DNA from: Methanosphaera sp.
Lineage (GTDB): Archaea > Methanobacteriota > Methanobacteria > Methanobacteriales > Methanobacteriaceae
DNA: 35,478 bases
NCBI RefSeq assembly: GCF_022768985.1
Contig: NZ_JALEKL010000012.1
Location: forward strand, 1 to 35,478
Direction of reading: 5' to 3'
This document shows, one piece after another, positions 22,475-32,354 of the stretch; within the stretch, counting starts at the first letter, position 1, and each line of letters opens with the position of its first letter. Made by a program: the position numbers and the translations under genes. The notes below the pieces were generated by a model. That model saw nothing but the letters and a program-made list of their open reading frames with translations. It made no database searches and was not told the DNA's origin.

Positions 22475-23410
22475 TTATTTAAGGTTTTTAATTACTGTAG
22501 GCTTTTTATTTTCAATTACTAGTTGCATAAAATCATATGCATAGTGTGTATTTTCAAATACAGCTTTTGCTTCATCTTCAAGTTCTTTTGATTCTGTGTA
22601 TCTGTTTGACAGGTGTGTTAACACTAAAAGATTTACACCTGCATCTTTTGCAATATATGCTGCATCTTCAGCTACTGTATGTCCATTTTCCTTTGCTTTT
22701 GTGCGTATATCTTTTGTAAATGTTGCCTCATGAATTAGTACATCAGCATCACGAGCAAACTCCACCATTGCATCACATGGTATTGTATCACCACTAAATA
22801 CTAGTTTTATACCTTTACGTGGTGGTCCTGTTACTTGTTGTGGTTTTATTATTTTTCCATCAACTTCAACATCTTCTCCACTTTGTAGTTTTCCAAATAG
22901 TGGTCCTGGCTTTATTCCTAGATCTATTGCTTTTTGTCTTAGGAATTTTGGCTGTCTTATCTGTTCTATTTTATATGCATAGTCTGGTACTGTATGTTTC
23001 ATTAGCCTTGCTTCTATTTTAAAGTCATCTTGTCTGTATACTTCACAGTTTTGTTCTGTTATTTCATGTGTTATTATTTCATATCCTATTGTTGCATAGC
23101 CTAGATGTTTTATATTTTCAAGTAGTTGTCCTATTCCTTTAGGCCCATAGATGTTAAGTGGTCTGTCTCGTCCTCTGAATGCTAGTGATTGTATAAGTGC
23201 TGGAAGTCCTAGTATGTGATCTCCATGAAGGTGTGTTATGTAGATATCATCTAGTTTCATTGGACTTATTTCTGCTTCCATTAATTGTTTTTGTGTTGCT
23301 TCTCCACAATCTAGTAGTATCATACGATCTGATACTTTTACAACTATTGATGTATGATTTCTTTTTCGTGTTGGAATTGCTGATGCTGTACCTAAAAATG
23401 TAACTTCTAT
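22475..23410 (-). CDS. rnz: ribonuclease Z (tRNA 3' processing), apparent ATA start
   Basis: It cuts pre-tRNA at the discriminator to make the 3' end; the tRNA here lacks an encoded CCA. The full frame gives xEVTFLGTASAIPTRKRNH and then TSIVVKVSDRMILLDCGEAT, the classical RNase Z N-terminus. THLHGDHILGLP (metal motif), LVFSGDT, LIHEATF and LTHLSNRY follow; 311 aa is the usual length. The first in-frame ATG (23323) would remove the first beta strands with FLGT. No ATG, GTG or TTG exists between the in-frame TAG (23423-23425) and GAA-GTT. ATA at 23408-23410, or ATT at 23411-23413, lies 6-9 nt after AGGGG, so a non-standard start is likely. A sequence error remains possible. Confidence 0.9.
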   Translation of the reverse strand: MEVTFLGTASAIPTRKRNHTSIVVKVSDRMILLDCGEATQKQLMEAEISPMKLDDIYITHLHGDHILGLPALIQSLAFRGRDRPLNIYGPKGIGQLLENIKHLGYATIGYEIITHEITEQNCEVYRQDDFKIEARLMKHTVPDYAYKIEQIRQPKFLRQKAIDLGIKPGPLFGKLQSGEDVEVDGKIIKPQQVTGPPRKGIKLVFSGDTIPCDAMVEFARDADVLIHEATFTKDIRTKAKENGHTVAEDAAYIAKDAGVNLLVLTHLSNRYTESKELEDEAKAVFENTHYAYDFMQLVIENKKPTVIKNLK

Positions 23411-23450
23411 AATAAACAGCCCCTATTGTATTATTTTTTTTGTTAAGAGA

Positions 23451-24589: not shown

Positions 24590-24677
24590 AAAACAACATA
24601 AATATAACATGAGAATATTCAAATGAGTACTAAAATAAATAGTCATCAAATGTAATATTCATAAGGAGAATTATATT

Positions 24678-25130
24678 ATGGAAGAATATAACAACAACAT
24701 AGAAAATGAAGAAATCATAGAAGAAGAATTTAATGAAGAAGCATTCGATGAAATGGTGGATGATGAAGAAAATGAAAAACTACCATTTGCAAAAGCAGAA
24801 GTAGTTCGTCTTATGAAACAACACCTAGATGATGACAAAATGATAAGAGAACGTGTAAAAGTAGAAATGAACAAATTCCTAGGTGACGTTCTTGAAAATG
24901 TATGTAAACAATTAAATCAATACCCATATTCAACAGTAGAATATGAAATGCTTAAAGAATCAACATACCCATACAGAAACATTGAAAGAATCAATGAAGA
25001 AAAACTAAGAATCCTAAAACACCTAGATGCAATAAAAGCAGACTGTGACGCACTAAGTATGGATGTTAAAGCAACACTTAAAATCAACGACAGACCAGAT
25101 CAAGACGAAGAAGAAGACGATTTATTCTAA
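24678..25130 (+). CDS. histone-fold protein with acidic N-terminal tail and C-terminal helix
   Basis: The 150-aa product has three parts. Residues 1-35 are very acidic ([20 protein letters not shown]). Residues about 35-100 align with the archaeal histone fold: [15 protein letters not shown] parallels LPIAPIGRIIKDA (helix 1), [20 protein letters not shown] parallels the long helix 2, and [11 protein letters not shown] parallels KTIKAEDIELA (loop and helix 3). A further helix ([20 protein letters not shown]) and an acidic end ([10 protein letters not shown]) follow. Classic archaeal histones are only about 65-70 aa, basic, and tailless. AGGAG (24664-24668) precedes ATG. DNA binding is uncertain because of the acidity; a chaperone or modulator is possible. 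The fold is assigned by eye only. Confidence 0.6.
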
Positions 25131-25157
25131 GTCAAAAAAATAAAAATATATTACAAT

Positions 25158-25185
25158 CCCCACCCCCAATTTTTACCTTTTTTTT
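25158..25185 (+). terminator. C-rich plus oligo-T end of the histone-fold gene
   Basis: CCCCACCCCC (25158-25167) is followed by AATTTTTACC and T8 (25178-25185), about 30-55 nt after the stop codon. Confidence 0.5.
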
Positions 25186-25301
25186 AAAAAAAATATTAAA
25201 TTTATAATAATATTTACATAACTAATCTAAATATTCATCTAAAAAATTAAATTCTAAAAAAAATAAGAAAAAAAAGAGAATTATAATATTCAACTAATTT
25301 T

Positions 25302-28277
25302 TTATGATAATAATCCTTTGTAAATATCATCAAAAATAATACCTTCAATTCTTTCTCTTGATTCCCTGTCCTTAATTAGTAATGAACTTAAATCTTTTGT
25401 AGAATCTGATGAATTTACTAAGTTATTAATCAAATATTGTTTAAAACTATTCTTATCTGACTCATTACTAAAAACTGAGGATCTAAATTCTTCTTTAGAA
25501 TTATTTTTTACTGAATCTTTTAAAATACTAGAATTAATCATATCTTCTTTTATTTTATTTATTAATGAACAACCATCATCAATATCAAAATCCTTTCCTT
25601 TTTGATCATGAAGCATTTTAAGTATTTCAGATAAATGAATTTCTTTATCATCTACACTTACAATATTACTACTTTGATTAGTTCCATGTATTATCTCATT
25701 TTCACAGATAATACCTTTATGATATTCATCTTTTTTTTGTTGTTTAACTTCACTAATAGCAATAAGACCATCTAAGTTACATTTAAATTCATATTGACTT
25801 TTCAAATATGTACTTAAAGATGAAAATAAATTATATTTTATATGAAGAGATTTATCTTTAAAATCTGAAGATAAAGTTAAAAATTCATAAACTCTGATAA
25901 ATTTATGTATTAACTTTCTAAGTTTATCTCTTTCATCTTCTGGAATATTTTCAATCTTTGAAATTTCAGATTGAATAAATTTAATTAATTCTTTTGTATT
26001 ATTATTATCACTTAATGATTTATTGAAATTTCTAAGATCTTCCATGCTTATGTTATAATATTTATTAATCTTTAATTCTAATTCATAGATACTTCCTACT
26101 GATAAGATATCACCTAAAAGTGTTGTTTGAGTATAATATTGTGAAAATGCTTCTTTAATATCTTTATAATCGTTTTCAAAGTCAAGAATAAAAGTATTCT
26201 TATTTGATGAATATGTTCTATTAAGTCTTGAAAGTGTTTGAACAGCATTAACTCCTCTTAATTCTTTACAAATATACATTGCACAAAGTTTTGGTTGATC
26301 AAAACCTGTCTGATATTTATTTGCAACAATTAATATTCTATTTTCATCTTTATCAAATACACTTGGAAGTTTATCTGCAGAAAATCCATTTATACTCTCT
26401 TCACTAAATTCACCATCATATCCTTTAAGTTTTACCTTATCTGTAAAAGCCACAAGAGGAATATTAATATCAAGATGCTTTTCAGCAATATATTTTTTAA
26501 TAGCTAAGTAATATTTAACAACAGCTTCTCTTGATGAGGTAACAATCATAGCTTTAGATTTACCACCTAGTTCACCATTTACATTACATAAAAAGTGTTT
26601 AATTATAATTTCTACTCTTTGTTTAATATTTTCATCATCGAGTGAAATAGCTTTTTTAATTTCACCCATTGCTTCACGTGGCTTATACTTGGGATCTTTT
26701 GATGTTATCTTCTCAATATTACAATATGTTTCATATGTTGTGTAATTTTTAAGTACATCAAGAATAAATTTTTCCTCTATTGCTTGTTTCATAGAATATA
26801 TATGGAAAGGTTCTTTTTGTCCTTTATTATTTTTTCTTCCGAATAAATTTAATGTTGAATCTTTAGGTGTTGCTGTAAAAGCAAATGTTGAAATATTATC
26901 CTGTTTTCCATGAGCTTTCATATCCTTTTCAATAAACTGATTAGGTGTATCCATACTTTCTTTTGATGATAAAGTTTTATATACAGATCGCATTTCCTCA
27001 CCTGAAGTTGAAGAATGAGCCTCATCAATAATAAGAGCAAATTTCTTATTTTGCATAGATTGTACTTTATCTATTATGTAATTAAATTTCTGAATTGTTG
27101 ATATGATAATTTTATTATTTCCCTCCAAAGCTTCGGCAAGATCAATAGATGTACAACTATTATCCATAGACTTAATAAAACCTCCTTGATGTTCCAGACT
27201 ATTAATTGCATCTTGAAGTTGTCTATCAACAACTATACGATCAGTAATAATTAAAACACTATCAAAAATAATTTCATCAGACTCATTATGAAGAGAAGCT
27301 AACCTATATGCAAGCCAAGCAATAGACTTAGTTTTTCCACTACCTGCACTATGCTGAATTAAATAGTTCTTAGATGAACCATTAACCATGACATCTTCAA
27401 GAATTTTATGCACAACATCACGCTGATGATACCTTGGAAAGATTAATGATTTTTCTTTAACAATATTACCTGTATTTTCATCAACAACTCTTTTTTCATC
27501 TAAAAAAATAAACTTACTAATTAACTCAATAATTGAATCCTTAGTTAAAATATCCTCCCACATATAAGAAACTTTACAAACTTGATCATCATCACTAGGA
27601 TTTCCAGCACCCTTATTTATACCACTTCCACTACCCCTATTAAATGGTAGAAAAACAGTGGAATCTCCATCAAGTTTAGTTGTCATATAAACATTTTCAA
27701 GATCCATTGCAAAATTAACAAGACAACCACAATTAAACTTAAAAAGTCTTCCATCAGGATCTCTACTCTCTTTATACTGATCAATAGCATCATAATAAGA
27801 TTGACCTGAAAAATTACTTTTAAGCTCAAAACTCATAATAGCAAAACCATTAAGAAAAATAACAAGATCAACTCTTTCCTTATCAGATGCATGAACCTCT
27901 TCAATAACAGATAAAATATTATTACCATAATTTACTACAAGATCATCATTAAAAGAGTTAGCAGGCTTATTATACATCAAATTAACCTTAATATTTGAAA
28001 TAGTAACACCATGTTTAAGAGCATAAAGCAAACCAGTATCATTTTTGATAACTCTATTAATCTCACTAACTATCTCATTAAGATCTCCATGATATACTTC
28101 TTTAAGTTCACTTAATGTATCAGGCTGAGTTTTAGATAAAAAATCAAAAAATAAGTCACAATCCATAGCACAAGATTTATCAAAATCATGACTTTTTCTT
28201 ATAATAAAATTATTTTCATCCTTAAGATAATTAATAAAAAACCTCTGAAAATCACATTCTTTAAGAACATTAATCAT
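25302..28277 (-). CDS. hsdR: type I restriction enzyme R subunit (endonuclease/translocase)
   Basis: This is the motor and nuclease subunit of a type I restriction system. The 991-aa length is typical. The N-terminal PD-(D/E)xK nuclease site is visible as RVDLVIF...FELKS (Asp137, Glu151, Lys153). The SF2 motor follows: Walker A HSAGSGKTKS (309-318), LIITDRIVVDRQLQ, DEAH (418-421), FTATP, and the second half ILIVANKYQTGFDQPKL with VQTLSRLNRTY (motif VI). The C-terminal about 300 residues are helical. The start ATG overlaps the hsdS end by 8 bp, so the two are translationally coupled. The system runs hsdM-hsdS-hsdR. The reading frame is intact. Confidence 0.93.
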   Translation of the reverse strand: MINVLKECDFQRFFINYLKDENNFIIRKSHDFDKSCAMDCDLFFDFLSKTQPDTLSELKEVYHGDLNEIVSEINRVIKNDTGLLYALKHGVTISNIKVNLMYNKPANSFNDDLVVNYGNNILSVIEEVHASDKERVDLVIFLNGFAIMSFELKSNFSGQSYYDAIDQYKESRDPDGRLFKFNCGCLVNFAMDLENVYMTTKLDGDSTVFLPFNRGSGSGINKGAGNPSDDDQVCKVSYMWEDILTKDSIIELISKFIFLDEKRVVDENTGNIVKEKSLIFPRYHQRDVVHKILEDVMVNGSSKNYLIQHSAGSGKTKSIAWLAYRLASLHNESDEIIFDSVLIITDRIVVDRQLQDAINSLEHQGGFIKSMDNSCTSIDLAEALEGNNKIIISTIQKFNYIIDKVQSMQNKKFALIIDEAHSSTSGEEMRSVYKTLSSKESMDTPNQFIEKDMKAHGKQDNISTFAFTATPKDSTLNLFGRKNNKGQKEPFHIYSMKQAIEEKFILDVLKNYTTYETYCNIEKITSKDPKYKPREAMGEIKKAISLDDENIKQRVEIIIKHFLCNVNGELGGKSKAMIVTSSREAVVKYYLAIKKYIAEKHLDINIPLVAFTDKVKLKGYDGEFSEESINGFSADKLPSVFDKDENRILIVANKYQTGFDQPKLCAMYICKELRGVNAVQTLSRLNRTYSSNKNTFILDFENDYKDIKEAFSQYYTQTTLLGDILSVGSIYELELKINKYYNISMEDLRNFNKSLSDNNNTKELIKFIQSEISKIENIPEDERDKLRKLIHKFIRVYEFLTLSSDFKDKSLHIKYNLFSSLSTYLKSQYEFKCNLDGLIAISEVKQQKKDEYHKGIICENEIIHGTNQSSNIVSVDDKEIHLSEILKMLHDQKGKDFDIDDGCSLINKIKEDMINSSILKDSVKNNSKEEFRSSVFSNESDKNSFKQYLINNLVNSSDSTKDLSSLLIKDRESRERIEGIIFDDIYKGLLS

Positions 28278-29474
28278 CTACCATAACCTCTTTTTTACCT
28301 GTCACATACTCATAAATAAGAGACTTCTCATACTCCTTAAGAACCTCTAACTGCTCCTCTTTTAAAGCAATAACTTCATCAATACTAGAAACCTTCTCAT
28401 CTAAATACTCAGCAATTTCTTCTTGTTCTTTTAATGATGGTAATGGAATATATTGATTTTTTATTGTTGTTGCTGTAATTAATGGTTGTGCAGTTCCTGA
28501 AGCTAATAAATCATATGGTAATAATTTAAGTACATAATATAAAAATCTAAGATTTATATGAGTATTATTTTTAATTATTAATGCATTATCTGATACCCAA
28601 ACATCTTTAACTATGAAAAAAGTTCCAGTAGTTTTTACTTTTGCTCCAACCCTTCCCATTATTAAAACTTCCTCATATACATTTTTTTTATTTATATTTC
28701 CAATTTTTCCATTTGCACCCATGATATCATATTTACCATTATCTACATAATCATTCTTTGAAACATATTCACCACTATTAATACTACAAACACTTTTTAT
28801 TTTGGAAGTTCTCCAGTTTTCAGGTATCTTATCTATCCATTCAACACCACTATCTTTCAAAGAAACATTATCATCAAGTCCCCTTGTAACTACTTCAGAA
28901 ATTAATGATAACTTATACTCTTTAAGAATTTGAACTTGTTCTTTAATTTCATGAGAAATTTCATTTATATCTGAACATTTTTTATTTAAATAATTTGTAA
29001 TTTCTTTTTGTTCTGATATTGGAGGAAGTAAAAAAGGCATACTTTTTAGAAAATTTCCATCCACATGTGGAATTCCCATCCCATTAGTATTCTTTTTAAG
29101 TTCAATTTCCATAAATTTTAAATAAAATTTTCCATAATCATTTATTAATTTCTGATGATTCTTAGATAATATTGCTGTTGTAGAAGGTGCATATCCTTTA
29201 GGATGATCTAAAATAATTTCACCTGCTTTAGATCCATCCCATAATAATAGAATATCATCTTCTTCTACTAAATCACCATCTTCAGCATATTTTAACACTA
29301 CATCTTTTCCCCTAATATAATCCATAGATAAATATGGAGTTAAAGAGTTATCATCATAAAATTTAGAAGGTAATTTAGCTTTTTTAATATTATAAACAAA
29401 TTTAAGTCTTAATTTTCCCAATGATCTGGAATTACTCCAAGCCATTCAACTCCACTATCTTTAAAATTAGACAT
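28270..29474 (-). CDS. hsdS: type I restriction specificity subunit, frameshifted near its start
   Basis: HsdS chooses the DNA target. The true start is ATG 29474, 2 bp after the hsdM stop with AGGAGATT before it, giving MSNFKDSGVEWLGVIPDHWE followed by Asn and a TAA at 29411-29409. Adding one A to the AAAA run at 29413-29416 would read on as KLRLKFVYNI into the long frame. That frame on its own starts at ATG 29445 and runs 391 aa. The centre repeats the N-terminal phrase (KDSGVEWIDKIPENW), supporting the repair. Two target domains alternate with coiled-coil spacers (ISEQKEITNYLNKK and LKEQEEIAEYLDEKVSSIDE). It could be inactive, shortened by restart at 29445, or a sequence error. Confidence 0.85.
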
Positions 29475-29476
29475 TT

Positions 29477-31570
29477 TTAATCTCCTAATTTATTAACCTT
29501 TTCATTCATCATCTTTTCTAATTTAAGAAATTTATCTAATAGAATATTACTTGAAGTTGGTTTCTGATATTTGTAAAAACACTTATTGAATGATATTTCA
29601 GCTCCTTCTTTTTTGGAATCCTTTTTAGCTGAAATTCGCGTATTTTCATTTACAAATGGTAATACTTCCTTTTCAAAATATTCATTAATATTTACAGTAG
29701 ATGGTATAATTTCTGTAATTTTTGAATCTGGTTCAGTATCATATCTCACTCCTCCTCTTTTATTCCTCTCAGGAGGTAAAGTTTCATCTCTAACTGAAAG
29801 ACCTTTCATAATTTGATTTACCTTATTTGTGAGTTCTTTTTTACTATTAAAAATATCTTTAAGAATATCTAATAGTATTGGTTCAAATTCTTCTGAAGTT
29901 GTATAAATTTCATCTGAAATATTATTTGTTAATGAATCCATAATTGCATAATATGTAGATTCATTTTTTCTAAATTTTTCAAGTTTTGTTTTATCTTCTT
30001 TTTTAATTTTTTCTCCATTCAATTCTTTATTTAATAATTCTTCATATTTATTTTTATTAAAAAAACTTGATAAATTAGATTCACTCATTTTATTTATTCT
30101 TTCTTCAGTTATTGCATAATTTCTTTGAAGTGGTTGTTCTATTGTATATTGACATAATATAAATTCTTGATTATCATATATTTTTGAGTATTCATTTTCT
30201 TCAAAATCATGATATAACTTTGTAATTTTTTCTATATGTTCTGGTCTTATTTCATATTGTTTATTTCCTAATGAATTTCCTAATTTCTTTTTAAATGAAG
30301 ATGCATCTATTAACTGAATTTTACCTCTTCTTTTTTCTGATTTATTTTTAGATATGATCCAAATATATGTGGAAATTCCTGTGTTGTAAAACATATTATC
30401 TGATAATTGAATTATTGATTCTACATAATCATTTTCAAGTATCCATTTTCTTATTTTAGAATTACCTGAGGTTATTGTTCCACTAAATAAAGGTGAACCA
30501 TTTGATATTATTGCTGCTCTTCCATTATCTGCTAGTTTATTTATTGATGATTGTAAGAAAAGTAACTGCATATCTCCCCCATTAGGTACTCCTGCAGGAA
30601 AACGTCCATTTTCTTTTTTGGCTTCTTGATTTACTGCATTTTCCACTCCTTCTGCTGCTTTTTTACCTTTCCATGCTAATCCAAATGGTGGATTTTCAAA
30701 TAAAAATCGCATTTTCTCATCTTCAAAACAATCAGAAATCATAGTATCTTGAAGTTTAATATTACTTGTGTCTTGTCCTCTAATTAGCATTTCAGCAAGA
30801 CATAATGCATATGATTCTGGATTTACTTCCTGTGAGTAAAGTTTTACATTTGCATCAGGATTTTCATGTAAAATATAATCCATTGCTGTAGTTAGCATTC
30901 CTCCTGTTCCTGCTGCTTGATCAAGAATTTTCACTATTTTTTGTTTTTCATTTAAAACATCTTCACAACCTTCAGATAGTACCAATGAAACCATTAAACG
31001 AATAATATCTCTTCCTGTATAATGATCTCCTGCTTCTGCATTTTCTGAAAATCTTCTTATAAGATCTTCAAAAATATAACCCATTTTTATATTATCCACA
31101 TTTTTTGGATTTAAATCAACTTCACTAAATTTTTGTATAACTTCATTTAATCTATTAGATGCGTAAAGTTTTTCTATTTCTCTTTCAAAATCTAAGTTTT
31201 TAATAATATCAACTACATTTGGTGAAAAAGCATTAATATATTTTTTAAAGTTTTCAACAATATTTTCTTGATCATCTAATAATTTTTTTAGGGTAAAATC
31301 ACTTTTATTGTAAAATTGATGTTTTGAAAAAGTATATAACACTTCATCTGGATAATTATCCTTATTTTTAAGTACTTCTTCTTTTGTATCTTCAAGTGCA
31401 CATTCAAATCTTCTAATAACTACCATTGGTAGTATAACATCTTTATATTTATCACTTGTATATGGTCCTCGTAGTTTATTTGCTATATTCCATATCATAT
31501 CAGATTCTTTTTTAATATCTACTGAATTATTTTCATCCCATACTGTAAATGTTGTATTTTCTTCAGACAT
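29477..31570 (-). CDS. hsdM: type I modification subunit, adenine-N6 DNA methyltransferase
   Basis: HsdM protects host DNA and is also needed for restriction. The 697-aa product has the N-terminal helical domain (WNIANKLRGPYTSDKYKDVI, then LPMVVIRRFECALE), the docking segment FSENAEAGDHYTGRDIIRLM, the SAM site DQAAGTGGM (217-225; family DPACGTGG) and the catalytic NPPF (293-296). After about residue 480 there is a Lys/Glu-rich C-terminal region with RGGVRYDTEPDSKITEIIPS. It is longer than the classic 500-aa form, as in some families with an extended tail. GAGGGAATG precedes the start. It is the first gene of the hsd operon and is intact. Confidence 0.93.
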   Translation of the reverse strand: MSEENTTFTVWDENNSVDIKKESDMIWNIANKLRGPYTSDKYKDVILPMVVIRRFECALEDTKEEVLKNKDNYPDEVLYTFSKHQFYNKSDFTLKKLLDDQENIVENFKKYINAFSPNVVDIIKNLDFEREIEKLYASNRLNEVIQKFSEVDLNPKNVDNIKMGYIFEDLIRRFSENAEAGDHYTGRDIIRLMVSLVLSEGCEDVLNEKQKIVKILDQAAGTGGMLTTAMDYILHENPDANVKLYSQEVNPESYALCLAEMLIRGQDTSNIKLQDTMISDCFEDEKMRFLFENPPFGLAWKGKKAAEGVENAVNQEAKKENGRFPAGVPNGGDMQLLFLQSSINKLADNGRAAIISNGSPLFSGTITSGNSKIRKWILENDYVESIIQLSDNMFYNTGISTYIWIISKNKSEKRRGKIQLIDASSFKKKLGNSLGNKQYEIRPEHIEKITKLYHDFEENEYSKIYDNQEFILCQYTIEQPLQRNYAITEERINKMSESNLSSFFNKNKYEELLNKELNGEKIKKEDKTKLEKFRKNESTYYAIMDSLTNNISDEIYTTSEEFEPILLDILKDIFNSKKELTNKVNQIMKGLSVRDETLPPERNKRGGVRYDTEPDSKITEIIPSTVNINEYFEKEVLPFVNENTRISAKKDSKKEGAEISFNKCFYKYQKPTSSNILLDKFLKLEKMMNEKVNKLGD

Positions 31571-31788
31571 TACATTCCCTCATTATCTTTTTTTAAATTA
31601 TTAAATTAAGTACGAAAAATGAATATAAATTATTATTTTTAATTAAAACACTTGCAAATAGTTTTATAATATTATTAATTCCATATTTTTTTAATTATAC
31701 TGAATAAAAGTTCTTTCATTTTTCTAATATTTCTTTTAATATATTATTTAGTATTAAAAAATAATAAAATTTACAGTATTATGCTATG
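31571..31788. other. AT-rich spacer with hsd promoter
   Basis: No gene is seen. On the minus strand AATTTATATTC (31619-31632 region) is a TATA candidate about 55 nt before the hsdM start. The remainder up to the nitroreductase gene end is AT-rich without clear structure. Confidence 0.3.
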
Positions 31789-31828
31789 AAAAAAAAGTTT
31801 TTATAAAAAAAAGAGATAAATTGGTGGT
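31789..31828 (-). terminator. nitroreductase gene end, double oligo-T
   Basis: On the minus strand ACCACC is followed by T8 (31805-31812), an 8-nt spacer and T8 (31789-31796). Confidence 0.5.
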
Positions 31829-31847
31829 TATAGTTATTGAAATATCC

Positions 31848-32354
31848 TTAGATATATTCAACTAGTTCACTTAATTCTTTACGTGGTGCATCACGTGGCT
31901 GTGCATCTGGATATCCTAGTGGTGTAAGAAGTACAGGATGTTCTTCATCAGAAAGATCTAGTAGTTCTGCCATTGCTTTTTCATGGAATGCTGCAATGTA
32001 GCATGTTCCAAGTCCTAGTTCTGTTGCTTGTAGTATCATATGATCCATTACTATTGTTGCATCTATTTCATTAAGATTTTTTATATCCCATGGTCTTGTC
32101 CATGCATCGTTTGCTTTACTTACAACTGCAAGTACATATGGTGCTTGGACTATCCATTCTTTATTGTATGATTTTAGTATTGCTTCACGATTTTTCTTTG
32201 TATCAATTACATATACTTTGAATGCTTGACTATTTACACCTGTTGGTGCAAGTTGTGCTGCTTTTAGGATTTTTTCGAGTTTTTCATCTTCTACAGGGCG
32301 ATCCTGGTATCCTCGTACACTATATCTTTTTTCTATTACTTCTTCAACTGACAT
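31848..32354 (-). CDS. nitroreductase-family flavoprotein
   Basis: The 168-aa protein begins with the FMN-binding signature RYSVRGYQDRPVEDEKLEKI, then AAQLAPTGVNSQAFKVYVI, IVMDHMILQATELGLGTCYI and LTPLGYPD. These are the standard motifs of NAD(P)H-dependent, FMN-containing nitroreductases. It is on the short side, as are many anaerobe members. The physiological substrate is unknown. GGAGG precedes ATG at good spacing. It lies 27 bp after the ZPR1-like gene on the same strand, so the two may be co-transcribed. Confidence 0.88.
   Translation of the reverse strand: MSVEEVIEKRYSVRGYQDRPVEDEKLEKILKAAQLAPTGVNSQAFKVYVIDTKKNREAILKSYNKEWIVQAPYVLAVVSKANDAWTRPWDIKNLNEIDATIVMDHMILQATELGLGTCYIAAFHEKAMAELLDLSDEEHPVLLTPLGYPDAQPRDAPRKELSELVEYI

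What the first reader, a model, noticed from the sequence alone, without database searches (positions are those of the whole stretch)
29405..29474. One-base frameshift near the start of hsdS
From ATG 29474, with a good ribosome site and 2 bp after hsdM, the frame reads a normal HsdS start and stops after 21 codons. One extra A in the run 29413-29416 would restore it. The start of the long frame at 29445 overlaps the short frame, so restart after the stop could give a protein lacking about 20 residues. This may be an on/off switch of specificity, a recent inactivation or an assembly error.
Basis: seen in the sequence. Interest (0 to 1): 0.6.

Follow-up and report, generated by a model that had tools for sequence, protein, structure and literature searches.

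The report
Frameshifted hsdS in a methanogen restriction operon
In a gut-type methanogen, the gene that tells a DNA-cutting defence system which sequence to recognise has lost one base near its start, so the full-length protein cannot be made; this looks like an ordinary recent mutation, possibly softened by a nearby backup start, and not an evolved on/off switch.

Summary
A complete type I restriction-modification operon (hsdM-hsdS-hsdR, minus strand, 25302-31570) carries a net one-base loss in hsdS. From ATG 29474 the frame reads MSNFKDSGVEWLGVIPDHWEN and stops at 29411-29409. The rest of HsdS is open in the -1 frame to 28270. Ten orthologous loci all read through this point without a break, with constant spacing in 19 aligned segments. 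A profile places the shift right after the conserved IPxxW. Reads were not available, so an error is not excluded. However, contig ends overlap by exactly 141 nt, which suggests a short-read de Bruijn assembly, and no other frameshift turned up in about 30 kb of conserved sequence on this contig. A real mutation is therefore more likely. An on/off switch is not supported: the run is only 4-5 A, one of hundreds in 70 kb of coding DNA, and there is no repeat tract or second hsdS cassette. An internal start at ATG 29445 has a decent ribosome site, so an HsdS lacking about 20 N-terminal residues may be made; its activity is unknown. Most likely: a recent inactivation or weakening of one acquired type I system. 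Low interest.

The parts
29477..31570 (-). hsdM, type I DNA adenine methyltransferase subunit, 697 aa, intact (motifs AAGTGG, NPPF)
   Evidence: Pfam N6_Mtase 1.4e-57 and HsdM_N 1e-23; PADLOC MTase_I 8.4e-213; motifs
29409..29474 (-). Interrupted start of hsdS: MSNFKDSGVEWLGVIPDHWEN then TAA
   Evidence: matches the N-terminal HsdS profile, 22.7 bits
29411..29420 (-). Stretch TGGGAAAATT within which one base is missing relative to orthologues (which base cannot be told)
   Evidence: profile frame-path scores 64.3 with a -1 shift, 44.2 without; constant spacing in 19 orthologous segments
28270..29445 (-). Long open frame of hsdS, 391 aa from internal ATG 29445; contains most of TRD1, CR1, TRD2, CR2
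   Evidence: Pfam Methylase_S 1.2e-35; PADLOC Specificity_I aligns residue 13 to profile position 28 of 448
29443..29453 (-). Possible internal start: GGAG, 4-nt spacer, ATG 29445; falls on the codons of the conserved SGVEW motif
   Evidence: duplex -5.9 kcal/mol; matched or exceeded by only 5.9% of internal out-of-frame ATGs
25302..28277 (-). hsdR, type I restriction subunit, 991 aa, intact (ELK, AGSGKT, DEAH, TAT)
   Evidence: Pfam HSDR_N, ResIII, T1R_D3-like; NCBIfam TIGR00348 1.2e-61, below its cutoff; motifs
25131..31847 (.). Segment holding the operon, placed between two convergent genes that are direct neighbours in three other genomes of the genus
   Evidence: synteny; operon G+C 26.1%, rest of window 30.2%

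Best explanation
The hsdS gene of an otherwise complete type I restriction-modification operon has lost one base just after the codons of its conserved IPxxW motif. Translation from the normal start, which sits 2 bp after hsdM, ends after 21 codons, so no full-length specificity subunit is made. Type I systems need HsdS for both methylation and cleavage (established knowledge), so the loss switches both off together and is harmless to the cell. The mutation is probably recent, because the rest of hsdS and all of hsdM and hsdR are still open. Some N-terminally shortened HsdS may be made from the internal ATG 29445. Shown: the shift, its position relative to orthologues, and the intact neighbours. 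Inferred: that it is real in the organism, recent, and reduces activity.
For: The frames were read directly. Ten orthologous hsdS genes beside a related hsdM or hsdR in the same family all have a continuous N-terminus with the same W-to-[KR][LIV]K spacing. The profile path gives 64.3 with the shift and 44.2 without. hsdM and hsdR are full length with catalytic motifs. The long frame has no internal stop, while the other two frames of that strand have 36 and 62. A 141-nt exact overlap between contig ends suggests a short-read de Bruijn assembly. No other real frameshift was seen in the parts of contig C12 covered by proteins of five relatives, 29.7 kb.
Against: There are no reads and no second strain, so an assembly error or a minority allele cannot be excluded. 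The intact downstream frame would also fit a shortened HsdS that still works. Only about 30 kb was checked for other frameshifts, which bounds the error rate loosely.
Confidence: 0.66

Rival explanations
1. Sequencing or assembly error: the gene is intact in the organism.
For: No reads were seen. The window comes from a draft of 15 contigs, and contigs break inside another hsdS of the same genome. Such assemblies can hold single-base errors or merge strain variants.
Against: Short-read indel errors in a 4-base run are rare (own knowledge). The contig-end overlap fits a short-read assembler, and no other frameshift was found in about 30 kb of conserved genes on the contig.
Confidence: 0.18
2. 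Functional shortened HsdS: translation starts at ATG 29445, and the protein (MAWSNSRSLG + KLRLKFV...) still recognises DNA, perhaps with changed stability or specificity.
For: The internal ribosome site at -5.9 kcal/mol is at least as strong as at 63% of real starts. All downstream domains are open. HsdS tolerates large rearrangements: an EcoDXXI S subunit with its N-terminus deleted still worked as a homodimer, and circular permutations of EcoAI HsdS work (PMC3874165).
Against: All ten orthologues keep the lost segment, and the [IMV]PxxW-type motif is present in nearly every N-terminal and central copy. Here it would be lost from TRD1. The internal start is a by-product of the codons for SGVEW.
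Confidence: 0.1
3. Reversible on/off phase variation by slippage in the A run.
For: Phase-variable hsdS by homopolymer change exists: NgoAV of Neisseria gonorrhoeae, poly-G of 6-9 (PMC9577141).
Against: The run is 4-5 A. Cut-offs used for switching tracts in Campylobacter are at least 10 for A/T and at least 7 for G/C (PMC6321876). There are 680 A4 and 306 A5 runs in 70 kb of coding DNA here, and hsdS has an A8 run elsewhere inside its open frame.
Confidence: 0.03
4. Programmed -1 ribosomal frameshifting fuses the two frames.
For: The direction of the shift is -1, and the two frames overlap by 37 bases.
Against: The zero-frame codons TGG GAA AAT TAA hold no X XXY YYZ heptamer. Orthologues have one continuous frame.
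Confidence: 0.02

Closest known systems
Frameshifted or degraded hsdS genes (pseudogenes) of type I RM systems
   Same: A single-base indel breaks hsdS while hsdM and hsdR remain open.
   Different: The break lies at codon 22, with a fair internal start 34 bases upstream of the stop.
NgoAV of Neisseria gonorrhoeae (hsdS1/hsdS2, PMC9577141)
   Same: A one-base change in a homopolymer splits hsdS.
   Different: NgoAV has a poly-G tract of 6-9 at the 3' end of hsdS1, giving a functional half-subunit. Here a 4-A run near the 5' end gives a 21-residue peptide.
EcoDXXI S subunit with deleted N-terminus (reviewed in PMC3874165)
   Same: N-terminally shortened HsdS.
   Different: [quoted passage not shown] Here nearly all of TRD1 would remain.
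Invertible hsdS systems (PMC7394358)
   Same: Type I specificity subunit whose product can vary.
   Different: No second hsdS cassette and no hsdS-derived inverted repeats at this locus.

Membership tests
Type I restriction-modification system | hsdM with N6-adenine methylase motifs and HsdM_N | tested here: met
   Pfam N6_Mtase, HsdM_N; motifs
Type I restriction-modification system | hsdR with nuclease, Walker A and DEAH helicase motifs | tested here: met
Type I restriction-modification system | HsdS with two TRDs and two conserved helical regions, uninterrupted | tested here: not met
   TRDs and conserved regions present, but the start is separated by a frameshift
Homopolymer phase-variable RM gene | Tract of a length known to vary (A/T at least 10, G/C at least 7 in PMC6321876) | tested here: not met
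   4-A run; runs of 4-5 A are ubiquitous
Homopolymer phase-variable RM gene | Both alleles present in a population | not testable with these tools
   no reads, one genome per species
Invertible or shuffling hsdS locus | Second hsdS cassette with inverted repeats nearby | tested here: not met
   repeat search of 24600-31900
Programmed -1 frameshift gene | Slippery heptamer with conserved overlap in homologues | tested here: not met
   sequence; ten orthologues continuous
Recent pseudogene | Disrupting change absent from orthologues, few further lesions | tested here: met
Recent pseudogene | Loss of activity | not testable with these tools
   needs a methylome or an assay

The most novel reading that the evidence does not exclude
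The codons for the conserved SGVEW motif (AGTGGAGTTGAATGG) carry a built-in out-of-frame ribosome site and ATG. This lets HsdS survive -1 frameshifts just downstream by restarting with a replaced N-terminus, and the shortened subunit still works in this archaeon, possibly with altered activity.
Probability: 0.08. Interest if true: 0.4.

Novelty: new member of a known kind. Interest (0 to 1): 0.14.

Why it matters
It corrects the annotation: a gene caller would probably report a 391-aa HsdS starting at 29445 with a false N-terminus, hiding the lesion. If real, it suggests this lineage has lost or weakened one barrier to foreign DNA. Broken hsdS genes are a familiar kind of thing, so the general lesson is modest.

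Tried and rejected
Looking for the same locus in viral contigs found none. The scan of genome contigs found only two distant relatives. Syntenic empty sites were checked for a hairpin split by the operon, because a 36-nt, 81% inverted repeat brackets it. The relatives' intergenic regions show no such palindrome, so this was dropped. Slippage, inversion and recoding were considered and rejected for the reasons given above. The one frameshift candidate in the contig scan lies in a plus-strand frame opposite the minus-strand rfcS gene and was discarded. An attempt to identify the exact species from genome papers gave no match for a 1.608 Mb genome in 15 contigs.

Full report
What was checked. The minus strand of the window from 31570 to 25302 holds hsdM (31570-29477, 697 aa), hsdS and hsdR (28277-25302, 991 aa). 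The hsdM stop is followed after 2 bp by ATG 29474, with an AGGAG ribosome site (duplex energy -7.0 kcal/mol). That frame gives MSNFKDSGVEWLGVIPDHWEN and stops at 29411-29409. It then accumulates stops throughout. The rest of HsdS lies in the -1 frame, open from ATG 29445 to 28270 (391 aa).

Is it a frameshift? Relatives of HsdM were sought in 139 genomes of the same family. Thirteen genomes, the window's own included, had a match at E <= 1e-60, and the closest locus (in G018) is 54% identical; HsdR gave a similar set. The stretch around hsdS was fetched for the orthologous loci, and ten had a readable HsdS start. All ten read continuously through the place in question. Their N-termini and central repeats, 19 segments in all, align without gaps at this place, with a fixed spacing from the W of IPxxW to [KR][LIV]K. 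The window fits that spacing only if the frame changes by -1 after the W/E codons. A profile of these segments scores the shifted path 64.3 and the unshifted one 44.2. The N-terminal part alone matches in one frame at 22.7 bits, and the RLKFVYN part continues in the other. The gene's own central copy, KDSGVEWIDKIPENWRTSKIKSV, has the same spacing. The missing base cannot be assigned to the A run: a G, A or T within TGGGAAAATT would serve equally.

Is it real? Reads are not available. Two contigs of the same genome (C1 and C8) share exactly 141 nt at their ends, inside another hsdS. That length equals the largest default word of the MEGAHIT assembler (own knowledge), so the genome is probably a short-read metagenome assembly. 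Indel errors in a 4-base run are rare in such data (own knowledge). Proteins from five related genomes were aligned to the whole contig C12. They cover 29.7 kb, and no other real frameshift was seen. This argues for a real change but does not prove it.

Is it a switch? Runs of 4 and 5 A occur 680 and 306 times in 70 kb of coding DNA on this contig, and hsdS carries an A8 elsewhere inside its open frame. Cut-offs used for phase-variable tracts in Campylobacter are at least 10 for A/T and at least 7 for G/C (PMC6321876). The known homopolymer switch in hsdS, NgoAV, uses a poly-G tract of 6-9 (PMC9577141). The locus has no second hsdS cassette and no hsdS-derived inverted repeats, unlike invertible systems (PMC7394358). 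The zero-frame codons at the overlap do not form a slippery heptamer, so programmed frameshifting is unlikely.

Could a shortened HsdS be made? ATG 29445 follows GGAG with a 4-nt spacer. The duplex energy, -5.9 kcal/mol, is at least as good as at 63% of the real starts on the contig and is matched by only 5.9% of internal out-of-frame ATGs. Both ribosome site and ATG arise from the codons of the conserved SGVEW motif. The product would carry nine or ten unrelated residues, then KLRLKFV and everything downstream; it lacks about profile positions 1-27 of 448. HsdS tolerates large changes: an EcoDXXI S subunit with a deleted N-terminus and circular permutations of EcoAI HsdS are active (PMC3874165). 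In a solved HsdS, a short strand at the very start of each TRD pairs with one at its end (PMC3047542). The lost segment probably lies just before that strand, so an effect on TRD1 is likely but not certain.

Context. In three other genomes of the genus (G003, G004, G016) the two genes flanking the operon are direct convergent neighbours. The operon has lower G+C than the rest of the window (26.1% against 30.2%). It is therefore probably an acquired defence system, absent from that site in relatives. G016 has exactly the 1,767,403 bases that PMC10845953 gives for Methanosphaera stadtmanae, so the genus is probably Methanosphaera.

Conclusion. The finding is a correctly observed one-base frameshift. 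The best reading is a recent inactivation or weakening of an acquired type I system in the assembled strain. Assembly error is the main rival, a working shortened HsdS the next, and an evolved switch has no support.

Noticed in passing
window 23323-23425 (minus strand), RNase Z gene: The RNase Z gene has no ATG at its conserved start: the family's opening (IIEVTFLGTASAIP) is preceded only by ATT/ATA. G003, G004 and G016 show the same ATT-ATA start, with a ribosome-site-like stretch upstream, and G001 has TTG-ATT, so a non-ATG start seems conserved in this genus.
   Followed up: partly
window 25162-25197 and 31793-31828: A 36-nt inverted repeat, 81% complementary, brackets the whole hsd operon. 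It could be ends of a mobile unit, terminators or chance in AT-rich DNA; empty sites in relatives show no matching palindrome.
   Followed up: partly
window 25131-31847: The hsd operon sits between two convergent genes that are direct neighbours in G003, G004 and G016, so it looks like an insertion.
   Followed up: yes
L002, L003 and L004 (G000 contigs C8 end, C1 end and C8 start): A second hsdS of the same genome is split across two contigs that overlap by exactly 141 nt; the other end of C8 carries a further type I methylase and specificity gene.
   Followed up: partly
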